Origin: Peribolospora baueri
Taxonomy: Eukaryota; Basidiomycota; Peribolosporomycetes; Peribolosporales; Peribolosporaceae
Length of the DNA: 33,795 nt
NCBI GenBank assembly: GCA_029717555.1
Contig: JAMDHS010000135.1
Coordinates: forward strand, 1 to 33,795
Direction: 5' to 3'
The notes beneath the pieces were generated by a model. It did no database searches. It was not told where the DNA came from and worked only from the letters and a program-made list of their open reading frames with translations. Below are positions 9,666 to 33,795 of this stretch, piece by piece (within the stretch, counting starts at the first letter, position 1; each line of letters begins with the position of its first letter). The position numbers were made by a program, and so were the translations under genes.

Positions 9666-12272
9666 ATGGTCGCCTCCGCTGTCCTCGGTTTCCCTCGCAT
9701 CGGTGAGTACAACACAGTCAATGCTAGACAGACAGGACAAGTAAAACACGCCGAGTCGCCCTCGCCGTCGTCGTCGTCGTCGTCGCCGTCGCTGACTGAC
9801 CACGCCCCCACCCCCCTCGCACCTCCTTCTCAGGCCCCAACCGTGAGGTCAAGAAGGCCGTTGAGGCCTACTGGGCCGGCAAGCAGTCCGCTGATGAGCT
9901 CCAGAAGGTCGCCAAGGCCACCCGCCTCCAGAGCTGGAACTACATCAAGAACGCCGGCGTGGACGTCGTCCCCTCCGGTGACTTCTCCCTTTACGACCAC
10001 GTCCTCGACGCCAGCAACACCTTCAACATCATCCCCTCTGCGTACGCCAAGGAGAACCTCTCCGCCCTTGACACCTACTTCGCCCAGGGCCGTGGTCGCC
10101 AGGTCGACTCGGTCGACCTTCCCGCCCAGGAGATGAAGAAGTGGTTCGACAGGTGAGGGCAACGTTGAACGCCGCTCGTCAGACGCATTCACCCGCCTCC
10201 GACAGGCTGCTTACGTTGCTTCTCCCTTATCTCCTCCCCAGCAACTACCACTTCATCGTCCCTGAGTTCTCCGAGACCACCCAGTTCACGCTCAACAACA
10301 CCAAGCAGGTCGACGAGTTCCTCGAGGCCAAGGCCGCTGGCATCCACACCCGCCCCGTCATCGTCGGTCCCGTCACCCTGCTCGCGCTCGGCAAGGTGTC
10401 CAAGGACTCGAAGCAGGAGAGCTTCGACATCATGACCCTTCTCCCCAAGCTCGTCCCCGTCTACGCCGAGCTCTTCTCCAAGCTCGCCGCCGCTGGCGCT
10501 GACTGGATCCAGGTTGACGAGCCCGTCCTCGTCCTCGACAAGGCCGTCGGTCTGGCCGACCAGTTCAAGGCCGCTTACGAGGCCTTCGCCAGCCAGGTTC
10601 CTGGCCTCAAGATCATGCTCACCACCTACTTCAGCCGCCTTGACTCGAACCTCAACTTTGTCAAGGACCTCCCCGTTGCCGGCGTCCACGTCGACCTCGA
10701 CCGCGCGCCCGAGCAGCTCGACGCCGTCCTTGCCGCCTTCCAGGGCAAGAAGACCGTCGTCTCCCTCGGTCTCGTCTCCGGCCGTAACGTGTGGAAGGCC
10801 GACCTGGCCTCGGCCATCGCCCTCGCCGACAAGGCCACCAAGGCGCTCGGTGCGGACCGCGTCGTCGTCGCCACCTCTTCCTCCCTTCTCCACACGCCCA
10901 TCGACCTCGAGAACGAGACCAAGCTCAAGCCCGAGGTGAAGGACTGGCTCTCGTTCGCCGTCCAGAAGGCCAAGGAGGTCTCCGTCATCGCCAAGGCCCT
11001 CACCGACCGCGCGTCCGTTGCCTCCGAGCTCGAGACCAACGCTCGCTCGATCAAGGCCCGCCGCGAGTTCGAGACGACCTCGGACTCGGCCGTGCGTGAC
11101 CGCATCAAGGCCATCACGCCCGCCCAGCTCCAGCGCGCCTCCCCCTTCGCCAAGCGTGCGGAGGCGCAGAAGGCCAAGTACGGCTTCCCCAAGTTCCCCA
11201 CGACTACCATCGGCTCCTTCCCCCAGACCAAGGAGATCCGCGTGCAGAGGCAGAAGTTCAACAAGAAGGAGATCTCCCAGGAGGAGTACGAGAGCTTCCT
11301 CGAGAAGGAGATCGAGACCGTCGTTCGCTTCCAGGAGAAGATTGGCCTCGACGTTCTCGTCCACGGTGAGCCTGAGCGCTCGGACATGGTCGCCTACTTC
11401 GGCGAGCAGCTCCAGGGCTTTGCTTTCACCGAGAACGGATGGGTGCAGTCCTACGGCTCCCGCTACGTTCGCCCTCCCATCGTCGTCTCCGACGTTAGCC
11501 GCCCGGCGCCCATGACCGTCAGGTGGAGCAAGTATGCGCAGAGCATCACTCAGAAGCCCATGAAGGGTATGCTCACTGGCGGTGTGACGATCCTCAACTG
11601 GTCGTTCCCGCGTGTCGACGTCCCTCGCGAGATCCAGGCCAAGCAGATCGCCCTCGCTCTCCGTGACGAGATCAAGGACCTCGAGACCGCCGGCGTGACC
11701 GTCATCCAGGTCGACGAGCCCGCCCTTCGTGAGGGTCTTCCGCTTCGTCAGGCTGACCAGGCCGCTTACCTCAACTGGGCTGTGGATGTCTTCAAGCTCG
11801 CCACCAGCGGCATCGAGGACAGCACCCATATCTCCTCGCACTTCTGCTACTCCGACTTCAACGACATCATGAAGAACATCATCGACCTCGATGCCGACCA
11901 GATCACCATCGAGAACTCCAAGTCGGACGCCAAGCTGCTCAAGATCTTCACGCAGTACCAGTACCCTGCCTGGATCGGCCCCGGCAGCTTCGACATCCAC
12001 AGCCCCCGTGTTCCGCCCAAGGAGGAGTTCATCGCTCGCATCGACGCCATGTGCAAGGTGCTCCCTAGCGACTTGCTCTGGGTCAACCCCGACTGCGGTC
12101 TCAAGACGCGCTCCTGGGAGAGCGTTGAGGGTGCCCTGACGTGAGTAGTCTTCGCTTGCCTTCCCTCCCTCGTTTCTTTCTTTTCTCACTCAATCTTCAA
12201 ACCCCGTTTGTCTTCGCCTATCGCAGGAACATGGTGGCTGCCGCCCAGGAGGCGCGCGCCAAGTACGTGTAA
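9666..12272 (+). CDS. MET6: Cobalamin-independent methionine synthase
   Basis: 5-methyltetrahydropteroyltriglutamate-homocysteine methyltransferase (MetE/Met6), the last step of methionine synthesis, cytosolic. Four exons, 9666-9702, 9834-10152, 10242-12140 and 12227-12272, all GT..AG and in phase, give 766 aa, the normal family length. The N-terminus carries VLGFPRIG then PNREVKKA, split by intron 1. The C-terminal catalytic half starts near FPTTTIGSFPQT. Zinc ligands are visible: His652 and Cys654 (HFCYS), Glu676 (TIEN) and Cys737 (NPDCGLKTR), with the spacing of the E. coli enzyme. The substrate-binding Asp/Glu region VIQVDEPALREGLPLR is intact. Codon use is extremely C-ending, typical of a highly expressed gene, and explains the long open frames on the other strand. 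Intron 1 contains a CGT trinucleotide repeat near 9766-9790. Confidence 0.98.
9766..9790 (+). repeat. CGT/GTC trinucleotide repeat in MET6 intron 1
   Basis: About eight near-perfect CGT units inside the first intron of MET6. Length variation here would not alter the protein. Confidence 0.75.
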
Positions 12273-13500: not shown

Positions 13501-13503
13501 TCT

Positions 13504-13592
13504 CGGTGACACTAGGAATCGAACCTAGGCTTTTGGAAATCTTCCGTCAAAGGACTTCAAAATCCAACTGTCTACCTCTAACATATGCCACC
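13504..13592 (-). tRNA. tRNA-Gln (anticodon TTG) with an 18-nt intron
   Basis: Read on the minus strand, a 7-bp acceptor stem forms between GGTGGCA and TGTCACC (one G-T pair). The D-arm has a normal AGAGGTA loop. The T-arm is CTAGG-TTCGATT-CCTAG, and the B-box GGTTCGATTCC is perfect. The anticodon stem TTGGA/TCCAA pairs fully only if about 18 nt after position 37 are removed as an intron. The mature tRNA is then 71 nt with anticodon TTG (Gln). The A-box is slightly off consensus (TATGTTAGAGG). A T7 terminator follows. That it is a tRNA is strongly supported. The isotype depends on the inferred intron position, and a class II reading without an intron fits worse. Confidence 0.8.
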
Positions 13593-13815
13593 ACGTTTGA
13601 TTTATCCAACCGCTGAGCGGCACATTGATTATAACCCCCATCCACGAGCTTCTTCCTCGCCCCGAGATGACTACTCACCGTTATCTGCCTATTGCCTTCG
13701 GTACTGTCTCCACTGTTCATAGCATATGCGATAGCGTTGGTGAGAGTGGTATAGTTCACTGATCTCAAGAAGACATACATGGCCCTATTGGATACAGAGG
13801 GCTCTACCAGCGTGT

Positions 13816-19995: not shown

Positions 19996-20056
19996 GGTGG
20001 CACGTATCAGCTGGCACCGTAGTAGGAAGATGTCTCAGTTTTGGGGTCACTTGCGC
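19996..20056 (+). repeat. Dispersed 60-bp repeat, copy 1
   Basis: Begins GGTGGCACGTATCAGC and ends GGTCACTTGCGC. It matches 26278-26340 in the same orientation, with one CT dinucleotide indel and one substitution. Flanks on both sides are unrelated. It ends about 160 bp before the PLPBP start codon, so it may be a promoter element or the residue of a short mobile element. Confidence 0.85.
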
Positions 20057-26277: not shown

Positions 26278-26340
26278 GGTGGCACGTATCAGCTGGCACC
26301 GTAGTAGGAAGATGTCTCTCAGTTTTGCGGTCACTTGCGC
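26278..26340 (+). repeat. Dispersed 60-bp repeat, copy 2
   Basis: Same orientation as copy 1 at 19996-20056, differing by an extra CT and one base. It lies about 190 bp upstream of a candidate start codon near 26530, a placement comparable to copy 1 before the PLPBP gene. Confidence 0.85.
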
Positions 26341-27546: not shown

Positions 27547-28248
27547 TTAGAAGACCTCGAGAATGCGCTGCAAAGCGGCAGGCTGTACTGCTTGCCTGTC
27601 GCACTTGGTCCAGTAGACTTTGTGCTTTTTAGTCAATTCACTGTACAGGCAATGCCGGGCGTGCGTGGTAAGTCCTCCCCTGAAGACGCGGTTTGTTATC
27701 ACCGTTGGGGGCGCGTCGTCCTCAAAGAACCGCACAGGGAGAAGGCCGGTGGAGCGATGCTCGGGCAGCTCAAATTCCCTCACTAGTGTGCCGGTCCTGT
27801 CGTTGCTCAGCTCGAGGGAGAAGGCACGGCCGGCGGGAGAGGCTTGCATGAAGCCCACGAACTCATCGAGGAAGTCGTCGAACCCCTCGACGCCCTGACT
27901 GTCGTTCGTTGTGTATTCGTAGGCCTGCAGCCTTCCTTCCGGCGTGACGAGGTATAGGTGCCCTTGCAGCTCGCCGCCGGGCAAGGAGGGTCTAGGTCTG
28001 CAAACCTCCCCTACTTCGCCCTCTCCCACGTCCACCTGGTACGATATCATGATGTTGTCCTCCTCGATGTCGAAGTGTTTGTGTACAAGGTGAAGGGAGA
28101 AGTGCTCGGTGGCTGCATGGCGCCTGAAGATCTCCTCCAGCTTGGCGAGCTCCTCACTAAATTCTTCCCAAGCGCCTGCCGCATCGGTAATGTAGGGCAG
28201 GGTATTGTAGTCGGCAGCGGCGATAGGCTTGTTGAGAAGAAGGGTCAT
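27547..28248 (-). CDS. Fungal orphan protein, 233 aa, intronless
   Basis: A single open frame of 234 codons from ATG at 28248 (MTLLLNKPIAAADYN) to the stop at 27547. The frame stays open upstream to about 28458, but without an ATG. The layout matches a type of small uncharacterised fungal protein I have seen in lineage-specific families: an N-terminal helix (EEFSEELAKLEEIFRRH), then HFSLHLVHKHFDI, ISYQVDVGEGEVG, a strand-turn block with LQAYEYTTND and a helix DDFLDEFVGFMQ. It has no signal peptide, membrane segment or catalytic motif. Its function is unknown. It is divergent from the kinase-like tandem pair. Confidence 0.7.
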   Translation of the reverse strand: MTLLLNKPIAAADYNTLPYITDAAGAWEEFSEELAKLEEIFRRHAATEHFSLHLVHKHFDIEEDNIMISYQVDVGEGEVGEVCRPRPSLPGGELQGHLYLVTPEGRLQAYEYTTNDSQGVEGFDDFLDEFVGFMQASPAGRAFSLELSNDRTGTLVREFELPEHRSTGLLPVRFFEDDAPPTVITNRVFRGGLTTHARHCLYSELTKKHKVYWTKCDRQAVQPAALQRILEVF

Positions 28249-28996
28249 CTTGTTTGCTTGTGGGGGCAGATACGAGACGACATCGGACAACCGAGCTGCT
28301 TTATACTCTCCTTGGGAGATCTCTCTTGGGGCTGATTCGGCTCGATCCCGGTGACAATGGCCGACTTCGGCCAGCTGATGTCGTAAGTGCTTATTGTCGC
28401 TCGATTGAGGACTTGGAGCTTGACGTTGAACTTGCGGTTGAGCTTGTGACAAGGCCACGTCGTCTGTGACGAGAAAGCCGAGCCTTTCCCTTAACGACGA
28501 TTGGACCGGTGAAATATCATGGAAAGTCTCAATGCTTTGATGTCTTCAGCGCCGACCGCCAACCAGATTTCCTTTTTGCCCTCGTCAATGTGCTCAGTGG
28601 GCCATGCACAGCATCACCGTTGCATATCCGTGACGCCAAAACTCGGTTGGGACAAACACCTGCTGAAATGGAGGGCGAGATAGGTGGCATGTTGCAGAAC
28701 GAGATCTGGGACGAGTGCAGAGAAGGCCCAGTCTCACTGAAACGCAGCAGGTGAGCACAAGGCGTCCCAAAAAGTCCAGGTTGGCTCGTTTGGAAGGAAG
28801 GTGCGGCTACGCTTCCCTGAAACGAGCCTCGCCATTGTTGGTCTCGGGTCCGAGATTGGGGGCCTGCCTGCTCTCGAGATCCCTTCCGACAACGAGAAGT
28901 TGTTCTCCGCCTTTTCCATAACTGGGCTGACAATAGAAGGCACAGGGACAAGCTCACTGGTTTGGTTTGGTTTTCAGGCCGACACTAGACAAGAGA
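28249..28996. other. Region between orphan gene and kinase tandem array
   Basis: Divergent promoter region. On the plus strand a frame over 28509-28750 ends at a good donor (AG|GTGAGC), and a frame near 28795-28970 reads protein-like (FPETSLAIVGLGSEIGG), but the phases do not join by any splice pair I tested by eye. It may be a decayed gene. There is no complete gene. Confidence 0.4.
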
Positions 28997-30680
28997 GTTC
29001 CGTGTCGACACTAATAACCACCCGCCAAGGCCGGCAAAGACGCGACGCGACATCCTGCCTGCCCATCCTATCGTCCTCATCCACCGCGTAAATTAGCCAA
29101 CAATAAAGTTTGAATAGGCGTCGCCACCGCGCTATCACCCTCGCCCTCGCCCTGACCTGCCCTCAGTTTCGAGTTCATTTCCTTACCACCACCACGGATC
29201 GTTCTCCTCTTTGTCGGCTCTGCCACCACTTTTTTTCATCGCCGCGGCCTCCTGGTGTCCCTGTGAGCCTCTCCGACTGTCTTCGGCTACTTTTCCAAAG
29301 CAGGCTCACGCGGTTGGCACGTCGACCACAGCCGGCGGTTTTGCCTCCTGCTTACCCACTCGGCACCTCGAACTTCGCCCCTACACGCCAAGATGTCGGC
29401 CGTGCTCCTGAGGGCGGATAGAGAGTTCAGATATTTCAAGCACTCCTTGTGGAGCTACTCGGTGTGGGGAGCGGAGGTATGGTACGAGAACTGGTACGTG
29501 CGCATCGTCGACAAGCCGGACACCCTCGCCGCCAGAGTGCTACGCTTCGAGGAGGACTTGCCCGAATACGAGGTTAACTTGGTTCTGCACGGCGATGAGG
29601 TACGCCGAACGGAGTACAAGGCCGACGACGGTGGAAGGGAACGCTACAGCCCCGTCAGCAGCGACCTGATGAAACGGCTGCCCGTTGTGTCGCCGGTGGA
29701 GGGAATACATTTCGTCAAGCGCCCGAGGGGAGATCGGGAAGTCACAAACTTGCTGGCAATGTTGGGACGCCCTGGCGTCATTCAGGTGCTGGGAAGGACG
29801 GCCGACAATGACTTGGTGTTTCCTCTCTACCCGTCGAGCATGGAAGCGCTTATTTGCTTAAGCCCCGAGCGCCCAGTGACGCAGATAAAGACGTGGTGCC
29901 TTCAAGTGCTGGACAGCCTGGAACAGCTGCATGCGCAAGGCATATGTCACGGCGACGTGGGCCTCCGCAACCTCCTCGACGCGGAGCCCCTCGTACTCTG
30001 TGACCTTGAGGGACCCTTTGAGGAGCCAAGCCCTGCGATTCCGGAGGCTCGCAAAGGCTTTCCCTTGAACGAGGCATCGGACGTGTACCTCTTCTCGTTG
30101 TGCTTGTGGGAGATGGTGAATCGCAACGCTCCTCGGCCCTTCATCAAGCTCGATCTGCAGGGCCCCTTCGGAGACGTCTTCCGCGCGTGCTCTGCTGAGG
30201 ACCCAGCCCTCAGGCCGTCTCTAGGGGAGATCAGAGTGATGCTGGAGGCCGTGGATGCGCCATAGAGGAAGAGTATGCGTGCCCGGTGCGTTGCTCGCCG
30301 CCTTGAATCGCGAACAGGTGTCTAGCCCGCATGGCGCTTTCGTCCGCTGATCTTTCTTCTCTGCCCGCGGTGCTTTGCCCTACTGCTTTCTTTGGCCTCC
30401 GCAGCACCTTTCCCTTCCCTCTTCGGTTTTCAGCAATGTCACTTTGTTTCGCTTCTCACCTCGACGCCGCTCATGAACAGAACCGCACTCGTCCCTTCAG
30501 GTCCCTCCGGTTATCTTCTCGGATGGCCTTCTGATAACCAGGGCAGTGCAGCTGGAGGTTATGAATTGATACGAAAATGATGATGACGAGGACTCGGAGG
30601 GCTGCTCTTATACTAGATGACAGGAGAGAGACCACAAAGGAAAGGCAATAAAGCAAAGCGCCTGATGGGTGCCTTCAGAC
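28997..30680 (+). repeat. Tandem duplication unit, copy 1
   Basis: First unit of a direct tandem duplication with a period of 1,696 bp. The 5' part (28997-29392) matches 30693-31088 with 4 mismatches in 396 bases. The 3' flank matches the second copy with about 3 mismatches over the first 268 bases, then small indels. Its right border is GCCTTCAGACG. The left edge shows a short TTCAG/GAC/ACTAG similarity to the junction, consistent with a microhomology-mediated duplication. Confidence 0.95.
29393..30265 (+). CDS. Protein-kinase-like gene A (intronless)
   Basis: A 290-aa protein with a eukaryotic protein-kinase fold, inferred from motifs. Likely catalytic residues: Lys109 (HFVKRP), Glu116, the catalytic loop HGDVGLRNLL with Asp188 and Asn193, and the metal-binding Asp204 in CDLEG (a DFG variant). 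The F-helix is SDVYLFSLCLWEMV, and the late Arg lies in DPALRPSLGEI. No glycine-rich loop is evident. Residues 1-100 form a separate N-terminal part with Trp/Tyr-rich WGAEVWYENWYVRIVD. ATG at 29393 has the context CAAGATG. There is no intron, unlike every conserved multi-exon neighbour. It is followed by a near-identical copy. Substrate is unknown. It could be active or regulatory, since the key residues are kept. It resembles the expanded, poorly known fungal kinase-like families. Confidence 0.85.
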   Translation: MSAVLLRADREFRYFKHSLWSYSVWGAEVWYENWYVRIVDKPDTLAARVLRFEEDLPEYEVNLVLHGDEVRRTEYKADDGGRERYSPVSSDLMKRLPVVSPVEGIHFVKRPRGDREVTNLLAMLGRPGVIQVLGRTADNDLVFPLYPSSMEALICLSPERPVTQIKTWCLQVLDSLEQLHAQGICHGDVGLRNLLDAEPLVLCDLEGPFEEPSPAIPEARKGFPLNEASDVYLFSLCLWEMVNRNAPRPFIKLDLQGPFGDVFRACSAEDPALRPSLGEIRVMLEAVDAP

Positions 30681-30692
30681 GATGACTAGAGT

Positions 30693-32370
30693 GTTCCGTG
30701 TCGACACTAATAACCACCCGCCAAGGCCGGCAAAGACGCGACGCCACATCCTGCCTGCCCATCCTATCGTCCTCATCCACCGCGTAAATTAGCCAACAAT
30801 AAAGTTTGAATAGGCGTCGCCACTGCGCTATCACCCTCGCCCTCGCCCTGACCTGCCCTCAGTCTCGAGTTCATTTCCTTACCACCACCACGGATCGTTC
30901 TCCTCTTTGTCGGCTCTGCCACCACTTTTTTTCATCGCCGCGGCCTCCTGGTGTCCCTGTGAGCCTCTCCGACTGTCTTCGGCTACTTTTCCAAAGCAGG
31001 CTCACGCGGTTGACACGTCGACCACAGCCGGCGGTTTTGCCTCCTGCTTACCCACTCGGCACCTCGAACTTCGCCCCTACACGCCAAGATGTCGGCCGTG
31101 GTCCTCAGGGCGGGTAGAGAGTTCAGATATTTCAAGCACTCCTTGTGGATCTACTCGGTGTGGGGAGCGGAGGTATGGTACGAGAACTGGTACGTGCGCA
31201 TCGTCGACAAGCCGGACACCCTCGCCGCCAGAGTGCTACGCTTCGAGGAGGACCTGCCCGAATACGAGGTTAACTTGGTTCTGCACGGCGATGAGGTGCG
31301 CCGAACGGAGTACAAGGCCGAAGGAGCTAGAAGGGAACGCTACAGCTCCGTCAGCGGCGACGTGATGAACCGGCTGCCCGTTGTGTCGCCGGTGGAGGGA
31401 ATACATTTCGTCAAGCGCCCGAGGGGAGATCGGGAAGTCACAAACTTGCTGGCGATGTTGGGACGCCCTGGCGTCATTCAGGTGCTGGGAAGGACGGCCG
31501 ACAATGACTTGGTGTTTCCTCTCTACCCGACCGACATGGAAACGCTTATTTGCTTAAGCCCCGAGCGCCCCGTGACGCAGATAAAGACGTGGTGCCTTCA
31601 AGTGCTGGACAGCCTGGAACAGCTGCATGCGCAAGGCATATGTCACGGCGACGTGGGCCTCCACAACCTCCTCGACGCGGAGCCCCTCGTACTCTGTGAC
31701 CTTGAGGGACCCTGGGAGGAGCCAATCCCCCACATTCCGGAGGCTCGCAAAGGCTTTCCCTTAAACGAGGCATCGGACGTGTACCTCTTCTCGTTGTGCT
31801 TGTGGCAGATGGTGAACCGCTCCGCTCCTCGGCCCTTCATCAAGCTCGATCTGCAGGGCCCCTTCGGAGACGTCTTCCGCGCGTGCGCTGCTGAGGACCC
31901 AGCCCTCAGGCCGTCTCTAGGGGAGATCAGAGTGATGCTGGAGGCCGTGGATGCGCCATAGAGGAAGAGTATGCGTGCCCGGTGCGTTGCTCGCCGCCTT
32001 GAATCGCGAACAGGTGTCTAGCCCGCATGGCGCTTTCGTCCGCTGATCTTTCTTCTCTGCCCGCGGTGCTTTGCCCTACTGCTTTCTTTGGCCTCCGCAG
32101 CACCTTTCCCTTCCATCTTCGGTTTTCAGCAATGTCACTTTGTTTCGCTTCTCACCCCGACGCCGCTCATGAACAGAACCGCACTCGTCCCTTCTGGTCC
32201 CTCCGGTTATCTTCTCGGATGGCCTTCTGATACCCAAGGCAGTGTGCAATGAATTGATATGAAAATGATGATGACGAGGACTCGGAGGGCTGCTCTTATA
32301 CTAGGTGACAGGAGAGAGACCACAAAGGAAAGGGAAAAAAAGCGAAGAGCCTGATGGGTGCCTTCAGACG
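30693..32370 (+). repeat. Tandem duplication unit, copy 2
   Basis: Second unit of the 1,696-bp-period direct duplication, ending at GCCTTCAGACG at about 32370, after which the two copies diverge. Identity in flanks is about 99 percent, but in the coding part only about 96 percent. Confidence 0.95.
31089..31961 (+). CDS. Protein-kinase-like gene B (intronless), tandem paralogue
   Basis: 290 aa, same layout and no gaps relative to gene A. The kinase residues Lys109, Asp188, Asn193 and Asp204 are conserved, but the catalytic loop reads HGDVGLHNLL (Arg192 to His). By my count 21 residues differ from gene A: positions 5, 9, 21, 78-81, 87, 90, 92, 94, 148, 149, 152, 192, 209, 213, 215, 240, 245 and 267. 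Several codons carry two or three base changes (for example Ala215 to His). Both promoters are almost identical, so the two genes are probably co-regulated. No stop or frameshift is present in either copy. Confidence 0.85.
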   Translation: MSAVVLRAGREFRYFKHSLWIYSVWGAEVWYENWYVRIVDKPDTLAARVLRFEEDLPEYEVNLVLHGDEVRRTEYKAEGARRERYSSVSGDVMNRLPVVSPVEGIHFVKRPRGDREVTNLLAMLGRPGVIQVLGRTADNDLVFPLYPTDMETLICLSPERPVTQIKTWCLQVLDSLEQLHAQGICHGDVGLHNLLDAEPLVLCDLEGPWEEPIPHIPEARKGFPLNEASDVYLFSLCLWQMVNRSAPRPFIKLDLQGPFGDVFRACAAEDPALRPSLGEIRVMLEAVDAP

Positions 32371-33173
32371 GAGAATAAAAGGTAATAGGACGGCCAGTGT
32401 GGCAGCCGCACTTCGGCACCAAGCCCTCAGGAAACTGCCACTTCCATTCATTTAATAAGATCCTCATTCAATCACCAGCATAGCGCTCTTCCTCCGCCCT
32501 CCCATTCTTGAGAATCGCCGCGCAGCTAGGCAAAATCTGGTCGACATCGACGCGTAGGGATTCTCCGAGTTGTTGAATGCATCCAGACCACTCGCATAGG
32601 CTACGAGAAATCCGTCTTGTGCTTTTCTCAAACCCCTCTCCACCTTTTTCTTGGTTATTTAGTCTGCAGTGCCAAGCTAGAAGCCAAATATCGAGACAGA
32701 GGTCGACAGCTTCAACGCGCTAAAGCTTGGGCCTAGATGGCCGTGCGGCAAGCGGAAGGAAGAAGGCCGCGCCTCTACAGACGAGAAAAGCGATGTTTAT
32801 GTCGCTCCTCTCGTCTTCAGTCTGGCCGTCCTCATGTCCTATTATTTTCTCATCCCAGAGATCGTCCTTCCCTTCCCCCTTTCTTTCTTCCATTCTCCCA
32901 CCTCGACCCCCAGGATCGGTTGGCTGGAGAACTAGGTAGCCGTACACTTCATGGATTATTACAAGGTCGCCTGGTCGGAGGCTTGAGCCAGAGGAAGCAA
33001 AGAGTGGTGAAGCTCTGTGAGGAGAGGTACATGACGGTGTGTGCTTTCACGTGTGCAGCTATTGCAGTAGCCATTGCGAACCTGTTTGGAAATGCGAGGG
33101 AGGAGAAGGCACGGGAAAGAGATTAGCTTCATTGATTCTCCACTCGTCGTCGGCTGCGTCCTCACCGCAGGTA
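32371..33173. other. Intergenic region right of the kinase array
   Basis: No supported gene. Frames between 32727 and 33126 on the plus strand and 32959-33354 on the minus strand are low-complexity shadows. It must contain the gene B 3' flank and the 3' end of the minus-strand phosphotransferase gene. Confidence 0.5.
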
Positions 33174-33795
33174 TCACGGCTGGTTCCCCCGGGTATATGA
33201 GGCGAGAAGCCCAGAGAGAGCCCGCGTGGATTCTAACCCACGACATTCTGGCCGTCTCTCGAGAAACTTCACCAGCTGCCTTGCTGCCTCTTCCCACTCT
33301 TCCAAGCCCCGAGACTGCTTTGCCATGAATTCCCAGAATGCGTCCTTGCTGCAAAGAGACGAGATGACGTCCTGAAGTTCTGCGTCGCTCATCAAAGGTC
33401 CGAGCCGGTGCGCCATCCCGCGCCTCTCCTCCTCGGCGCTGTGCGGAACGATTGGAGTGACCAAGAAATCAATGGAGTCCAGACGTCGGGGGCTCATTCC
33501 ATGTCCGCTTACCTGTAGAGCTCGAGGTACATGTCACGGTCAGTTTCGTAGTCCTCCTCACCCCAGCCCTTGATGAGCGATGGATAACTTGCCGCCTCCA
33601 CCAGTGGAAGCGGCTCGCCACACTTAAAGCCGACCCAATCGATGATCCTAAGAATTAACGCGTCAACGCGCCGGAGATCAGCCTTGAGTACGAGCAACAG
33701 TCGCAAATCATCTCGAGGCGGTGGGGCTCACCCGACAATATTCAACTCGTTATCGACGAGTATATTGGAGCCGCTGAGATCGCCGTGAACCATAG
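33174..33795 (-). CDS. APH/choline-kinase-like phosphotransferase, 3' part (truncated by window edge)
   Basis: C-terminal part of an aminoglycoside-phosphotransferase-family (APH, PF01636-like) protein. The minus-strand exons 33732-33795, 33513-33647 and 33174-33438 join in phase by GT..AG introns. The first carries the catalytic loop MVHGDLSGSNILVDNE (Asp of HGD and the following Asn). The second starts with the metal-binding Asp in GIIDWVGFKCGEPLPLVEAA, the usual APH order. The third is a helical tail (SDAELQDVISSLC, FLERRPECRG). The N-terminal lobe lies outside the window. In fungi such genes are numerous and mostly uncharacterised; true antibiotic resistance should not be assumed. Confidence 0.82.

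What the first reader, a model, noticed from the sequence alone, without database searches (positions are those of the whole stretch)
29393..31961. Tandem kinase-like genes whose coding regions diverged faster than their flanks
The two duplicated units match at about 99 percent in 5' and 3' non-coding flanks (4 mismatches in 396 bases upstream; about 3 in 268 downstream), but at about 96 percent in the coding sequence (36 of 873). I count 21 amino-acid replacements against 8 silent codon changes. Replacements cluster at residues 78-94, 148-152 and 209-215, and several codons carry two or three changes. Neutral decay would make coding sequence more, not less, similar than flanks. This pattern points to diversifying selection, or to gene conversion of the coding part from a third family member. 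It is what one expects of recognition or immunity-type genes.
Basis: partly seen in the sequence, partly recalled or inferred. Interest (0 to 1): 0.78.

Follow-up and report, generated by a model that had tools for sequence, protein, structure and literature searches.

The report
Tandem fungal kinase genes, homogenised flanks
Two neighbouring copies of a kinase-like gene, probably fungal, differ more inside the gene than just outside it, most simply because the near flanks were kept alike, perhaps by copying between the two genes, and not because the protein is shown to evolve unusually fast.

Summary
But the 1,696-bp tandem unit goes on beyond what was counted: the distal 3' flank differs at 12/141 sites plus an 8-bp and a 1-bp indel. 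Against all flanks (19/805) the coding excess is borderline (P=0.054).

No excess of replacements is found. dN/dS is 0.68-0.83 (bootstrap 0.43-1.74), and 21 of 29 is the neutral expectation. Silent sites (10/212) also exceed the near flanks (P=0.002). So the anomaly is low divergence in the near flanks. The replacement patches are largely multi-base changes: 8 adjacent pairs against 1.4 expected.

Best reading: a tandem pair of divergent protein-kinase-like genes whose near flanks were homogenised by gene conversion, leaving a coding island of divergence. This kind of pattern is described for red/green opsins, copepod GOT1 and gall-midge SSSGP genes. Selection on loops, import from a third paralogue, and constraint on the flanks remain possible. 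No paralogue, orthologue or host genome could be retrieved, so they cannot be separated here.

The parts
28997..30692 (+). tandem unit 1 (1,696 bp), abutting unit 2
   Evidence: alignment of the units; direct repeat spacing 1696
30693..32371 (+). tandem unit 2; the 3' end is fuzzy, weaker similarity reaches about 32377
28997..29392 (+). 5' flank of copy 1, 4 of 396 differences to 30693-31088
30693..31088 (+). 5' flank of copy 2
29393..30265 (+). copy 1, 290-aa protein-kinase-like ORF, no intron needed
   Evidence: Pfam PK_Tyr_Ser-Thr 26.4 bits (cut-off 23.1), Pkinase 20.8 (cut-off 31.7)
31089..31961 (+). copy 2, 290-aa protein-kinase-like ORF
   Evidence: Pfam Pkinase 20.6 (cut-off 31.7), PK_Tyr_Ser-Thr 19.8 (cut-off 23.1)
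30266..30533 (+). near 3' flank of copy 1, 3 of 268 differences to 31962-32229
31962..32229 (+). near 3' flank of copy 2
30534..30682 (+). far 3' flank of copy 1, 12 of 141 differences plus 8-bp and 1-bp indels to 32230-32371
32230..32371 (+). far 3' flank of copy 2
29624..29674 (+). patch 1 in copy 1, codons 78-94: 8 replacement codons, 0 purely silent codons
29834..29848 (+). patch 2 in copy 1, codons 148-152: 3 replacement codons, just after the kinase hinge
30017..30037 (+). patch 3 in copy 1, codons 209-215: 3 replacement and 1 silent codon, in the short activation segment

Best explanation
In an unidentified, probably fungal, genome a 1.7-kb unit with one 290-aa protein-kinase-like gene was duplicated head to tail. 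The copies have diverged by about 5% at silent sites and 8.5% in the distal 3' flank. The near flanks (396 bp upstream, about 150-270 bp downstream) were later made alike again by gene conversion between the neighbouring copies, while the coding region keeps an island of divergence with dN/dS somewhat under 1, partly made of multi-base changes in loops. Shown: the counts, the mosaic of low and high divergence, dN/dS not above 1, the excess of adjacent changes. Inferred: that conversion and not constraint made the near flanks alike, that the proteins are active kinases, and what protects the island (selection, block of conversion by mismatches, or chance).
For: Near flanks 7/664 lie below silent sites 10/212 (P=0.002) and below silent sites plus far flank 22/353 (P=9e-6), and silent sites do not differ from the far flank (P=0.18). 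Allowing for uncertainty in the silent rate, P=0.001 with 10 silent changes and 0.009 with 8. Break of rate inside the 3' flank, P=0.006. Long identical runs of 227 and 148 bp, longest P=0.015. The copies abut, a setting that favours conversion. Described precedents: opsins (PMC3924837, passages), GOT1 (PMC3728101, abstract), SSSGP genes (PMC2955719, abstract and section 7).
Against: Silent sites against all flanks pooled: P=0.10. With multi-base clusters merged, the run-length test is not significant (P=0.18) and CDS against near flanks is only P=0.038. The 5' flank is alike right up to the unit's edge while the 3' edge is not, an asymmetry not explained. No orthologue or third copy is available to show concerted evolution.
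Confidence: 0.42

Rival explanations
1. Diversifying or neofunctionalising selection on loops (linker 78-94, after the hinge 148-152, residue 192 in the catalytic loop, activation segment 209-215) drives or keeps the two kinases different in substrate choice.
For: Replacement codons cluster (P=0.0002) and silent ones do not (P=0.98); patch replacement divergence exceeds gene-wide silent divergence (P=3e-6); rest of gene 0.38. Patches 2 and 3 and residue 192 align at the hinge, catalytic loop and activation segment.
Against: Whole-gene dN/dS 0.68-0.83. Replacement share equals neutral. Patches chosen post hoc, own-silent comparison P=0.54; label shuffle P=0.05. Replacements are not radical: mean BLOSUM62 -0.05 against -0.56 expected, P=0.09 towards conservative. 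Multi-base changes explain the clustering.
Confidence: 0.2
2. Part or all of one coding region was imported by ectopic conversion from a third, more diverged paralogue elsewhere, limited by the shared coding homology.
For: Raised silent and replacement divergence together; blocks of adjacent changes (8 pairs against 1.4); differences start at CDS base 13 and end at base 799.
Against: The far 3' flank is just as diverged or more (12/141), outside any coding tract. Silent changes are spread evenly, not in tracts. No third copy in the window and no match of the variant blocks elsewhere in the window; the rest of the genome is not held.
Confidence: 0.15
3. No conversion: near flanks hold promoter and UTR elements under purifying constraint, while the coding copies drift under relaxed constraint with some multi-base mutations.
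For: dN/dS near 1 and replacement share equal to neutral. Immediate 5' and 3' flanks are where promoter and UTRs lie. Functional conservation of UTRs is also discussed for SSSGP genes (PMC2955719 section 7).
Against: Needs constraint over 664 bp to about a fifth of the silent rate, up to the very edge of the unit, stronger than that on the protein itself (inference).
Confidence: 0.15
4. Assembly artefact, for example two alleles of one gene laid in tandem, or local sequence errors.
For: Exactly two copies that abut; no reads available to check.
Against: Both frames are intact over 290 codons without indels. Absence of stops alone says little, since 26-31% of neutral runs have none.
Confidence: 0.05

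Closest known systems
Divergence peak in duplicated genes under gene conversion (red/green opsins, reviewed in PMC3924837, passages read)
   Same: Low divergence in non-coding neighbours and high divergence in the coding part of neighbouring duplicates
   Different: There the functional sites and the conversion are established; here both are inferred from one pair
Copepod GOT1p1/GOT1p2 paralogues (PMC3728101, abstract read)
   Same: Mosaic of high and low divergence between duplicates
   Different: Population data there show ongoing conversion; none are available here
Hessian fly SSSGP-1 tandem genes (PMC2955719, abstract and section 7 read)
   Same: Tandem genes with conserved promoter and UTRs and more variable coding regions
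   Different: Strong positive selection and highly diversified secreted proteins there; dN/dS under 1 and 93% identity here
FunK1 and unclassified fungal kinases (PMC3203195 section 13 read; PMC6001611 passages read)
   Same: Divergent, duplicating fungal kinases recognisable mainly by the C-lobe
   Different: Glycine, not the FunK1 serine, at the place of the usual catalytic-loop lysine; no FunK1 model among Pfam hits
ASSET segment switching in snake venom genes (PMC2711939, abstract read)
   Same: Short coding segments changed as blocks at surface loops
   Different: Here blocks are 2-8 bases, not replaced exon segments; surface position not modelled (model unusable)

Membership tests
Eukaryotic-type protein kinase | Match to a protein-kinase profile above the curated cut-off | tested here: inconclusive
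   Copy 1 passes PK_Tyr_Ser-Thr (26.4 over 23.1) and not Pkinase; copy 2 passes neither
Eukaryotic-type protein kinase | alpha-C Glu, catalytic-loop H-x-D...N, Mg-binding D | tested here: met
   E116, H186-G-D188, N193, D204 align with a Streptomyces kinase in copy 2; the part of the copy 1 alignment that was printed agrees, and these residues are identical in both copies. Catalytic-loop K is G190. The beta-3 Lys (K109) was placed by eye only
Eukaryotic-type protein kinase | Phosphotransfer activity | not testable with these tools
   needs an assay
FunK1 | Serine at the position of the ePK catalytic-loop lysine (PMC3203195) | tested here: not met
   HGDVG in both copies: glycine there
FunK1 | Match to the fungal kinase Pfam model (name recalled) | tested here: not met
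   only PF07714 and PF00069 at E up to 1
Duplicates under gene conversion with a divergence peak | Near-neutral flanks less diverged than silent sites in the coding peak | tested here: met
   7/664 against 10/212, P=0.002; pooled with the far flank P=0.10
Duplicates under gene conversion with a divergence peak | Paralogues within a genome more alike than orthologues between species | not testable with these tools
   no relative found
Genes under diversifying selection | dN/dS significantly above 1 | tested here: not met
   whole gene 0.68-0.83; patches 1.54, P=0.54

The most novel reading that the evidence does not exclude
The pair is a freshly split kinase module: one promoter/UTR cassette, kept identical by conversion, drives two kinases whose substrate-facing loops are held apart by selection against conversion, giving co-expressed paralogues with different targets.
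Probability: 0.15. Interest if true: 0.55.

Novelty: new member of a known kind. Interest (0 to 1): 0.28.

Why it matters
It shows how 'coding diverges faster than flanks' can mislead: measured against silent sites and the whole duplicated unit, the near flanks are slow and the protein is not shown to be fast. If selection does hold the loops apart against conversion, the pair would be a compact natural test of how duplicate kinases gain different substrates under shared regulation.

Tried and rejected
Search for relatives: own genome not held. Scans of viral contigs (2 of 8 used) and genome contigs (2 of 2 used) with the protein and with the two-row alignment confirmed no relative; the patterns were a few short peptides, so this misses distant ones, and both collections hold few or no fungi. 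tblastn on plasmids gave one record, a Streptomyces kinase at 30% identity, used only to place motifs. Phage and E. coli collections were not searched.

Structure: AlphaFold2 on the two copies, mean pLDDT 39, set aside. No fold search was made; the second prediction job was not used.

RIP (C-to-T mutation of repeats): put aside; 15 of 36 coding differences are transitions, and AT-versus-GC differences go 11 one way and 15 the other.

Local templates for the five multi-base blocks: no close match (best 3 mismatches in 14, otherwise 4-7 in 17-20) elsewhere in the window on either strand.

Absence of stop codons as a sign of constraint: uninformative; 26% to 31% of neutral runs have none.

FunK1: rejected on the catalytic loop and Pfam.

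Full report
What is there. No whole genome is held for the window and the species was not identified. Gene content points to a fungus: above Pfam cut-off are Svf1, an M48 peptidase, methionine synthase, Nup84, V-ATPase subunit C and a CCCH zinc finger; an alanine-racemase-N match is just below cut-off. That Svf1 is a fungal protein is recalled. At 28997-32371 lies a head-to-tail duplication of a 1,696-bp unit whose copies abut. Each holds one open frame of 290 codons.

The counts. The coding region is more diverged than these flanks (P=0.0002). But the alignable unit goes on for about 150 bp downstream, where 12 of 141 aligned bases differ, with an 8-bp and a 1-bp indel; this stretch is more diverged than the CDS (P=0.03). 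A break of rate within the 3' flank is significant (P=0.006). Against all flanks (19/805) the coding excess is P=0.054, and with neighbouring differences merged into events P=0.31.

Which part is unusual. Silent divergence is 10 of 212 sites (NG86 with averaged paths; 8 changed codons are purely silent), about 5%, like replacement divergence (26 of 658, about 4%) and not distinguishable from the far 3' flank (P=0.18). The near flanks (7 of 664) lie below silent sites (P=0.002) and below silent sites plus far flank (P=9e-6). Allowing for uncertainty in the silent rate, P is 0.001 with 10 silent changes and 0.009 with 8. So the near flanks are slow, and the protein is not shown to be fast. Against this: silent sites compared with all flanks pooled give only P=0.10.

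Selection on the protein. dN/dS is 0.79, 0.79, 0.76 and 0.68 by NG86, LWL85, YN00 and ML and 0.83 by my own NG86 (bootstrap 0.43-1.74). Neutral simulation gives 76% or 73% replacement codons; observed 72%. Codon positions are hit 13, 10 and 13 times. Patch replacement divergence exceeds gene-wide silent divergence (P=3e-6), which favours selection, but the patches were chosen after seeing the data. Replacement codons cluster (P=0.0002), silent ones do not (P=0.98), label shuffling gives P=0.05. Replacements are on average no more radical than random ones (mean BLOSUM62 -0.05 against -0.56; P=0.09 towards conservative).

Multi-base changes. Eight adjacent pairs of differences occur where 1.4 are expected (P=0.0002). 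Merging differences within 2 or 4 nt leaves no further clustering (P=0.49, 0.34); merging only adjacent bases leaves P=0.01. Replacement changes are rich in transversions (9 transitions of 28, P=0.036 against the flank ratio). [quoted passage not shown]

What the protein is. Pfam gives protein-kinase models at weak scores: copy 1 passes one cut-off, copy 2 none. The best PDB matches are kinases, TAK1 first at E=0.00016 (best 60 of 218 shown). Alignment with the Streptomyces kinase places E116, H186-G-D188, N193, D204 and P217-E218 at the expected motifs; patch 2 follows the hinge, residue 192 precedes the catalytic-loop asparagine, patch 3 lies in a short activation segment. That such positions shape substrate choice is general kinase knowledge. 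Glycine stands where FunK1 has serine (PMC3203195 section 13). The AlphaFold2 model was too poor to use.

Explanation. Low near flanks, raised silent and replacement divergence in the coding part, and long identical runs (227 and 148 bp; longest P=0.015, but 0.18 after merging) fit conversion between neighbouring duplicates with a surviving coding island, as described for opsins (PMC3924837, passages), copepod GOT1 (PMC3728101, abstract) and gall-midge salivary genes (PMC2955719, abstract and section 7). Whether the island is held by selection, is an import, or is drift beside constrained flanks cannot be settled with one pair. Searches of the paper library (listings only, 15 of 33, 3 of 3 and 8 of 12 papers shown) showed no fungal kinase case; this is weak evidence of absence.

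Noticed in passing
19996-20036 and 26278-26318: Exact 41-nt direct repeat; by eye similarity goes on about 20 nt beyond a 2-nt offset. Possibly a dispersed element or shared motif.
   Followed up: partly
33510-33795, minus strand: Window end shows a frame with HGDLSGSNILVD and, after an apparent intron, IIDWVGF: by eye and from recall, part of an APH-like phosphotransferase gene cut by the window. A nearby ORF, 33177-33533, has no Pfam match at E up to 0.1.
   Followed up: partly
27547-28545, minus strand: 332-codon stop-to-stop frame just upstream of the pair without a Pfam match at E up to 0.1.
   Followed up: no
10141-12144 plus and 10189-12189 minus: Long overlapping open frames on both strands (667 and 666 aa); only the plus frame, methionine synthase, has Pfam matches.
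   Followed up: no
542-578 and 609-645: Short 37-nt direct repeat, 84% alike, 67 nt apart.
   Followed up: no
13503-13593, minus strand: ARAGORN reports one tRNA of unclear type with a two-base anticodon; doubtful.
   Followed up: no
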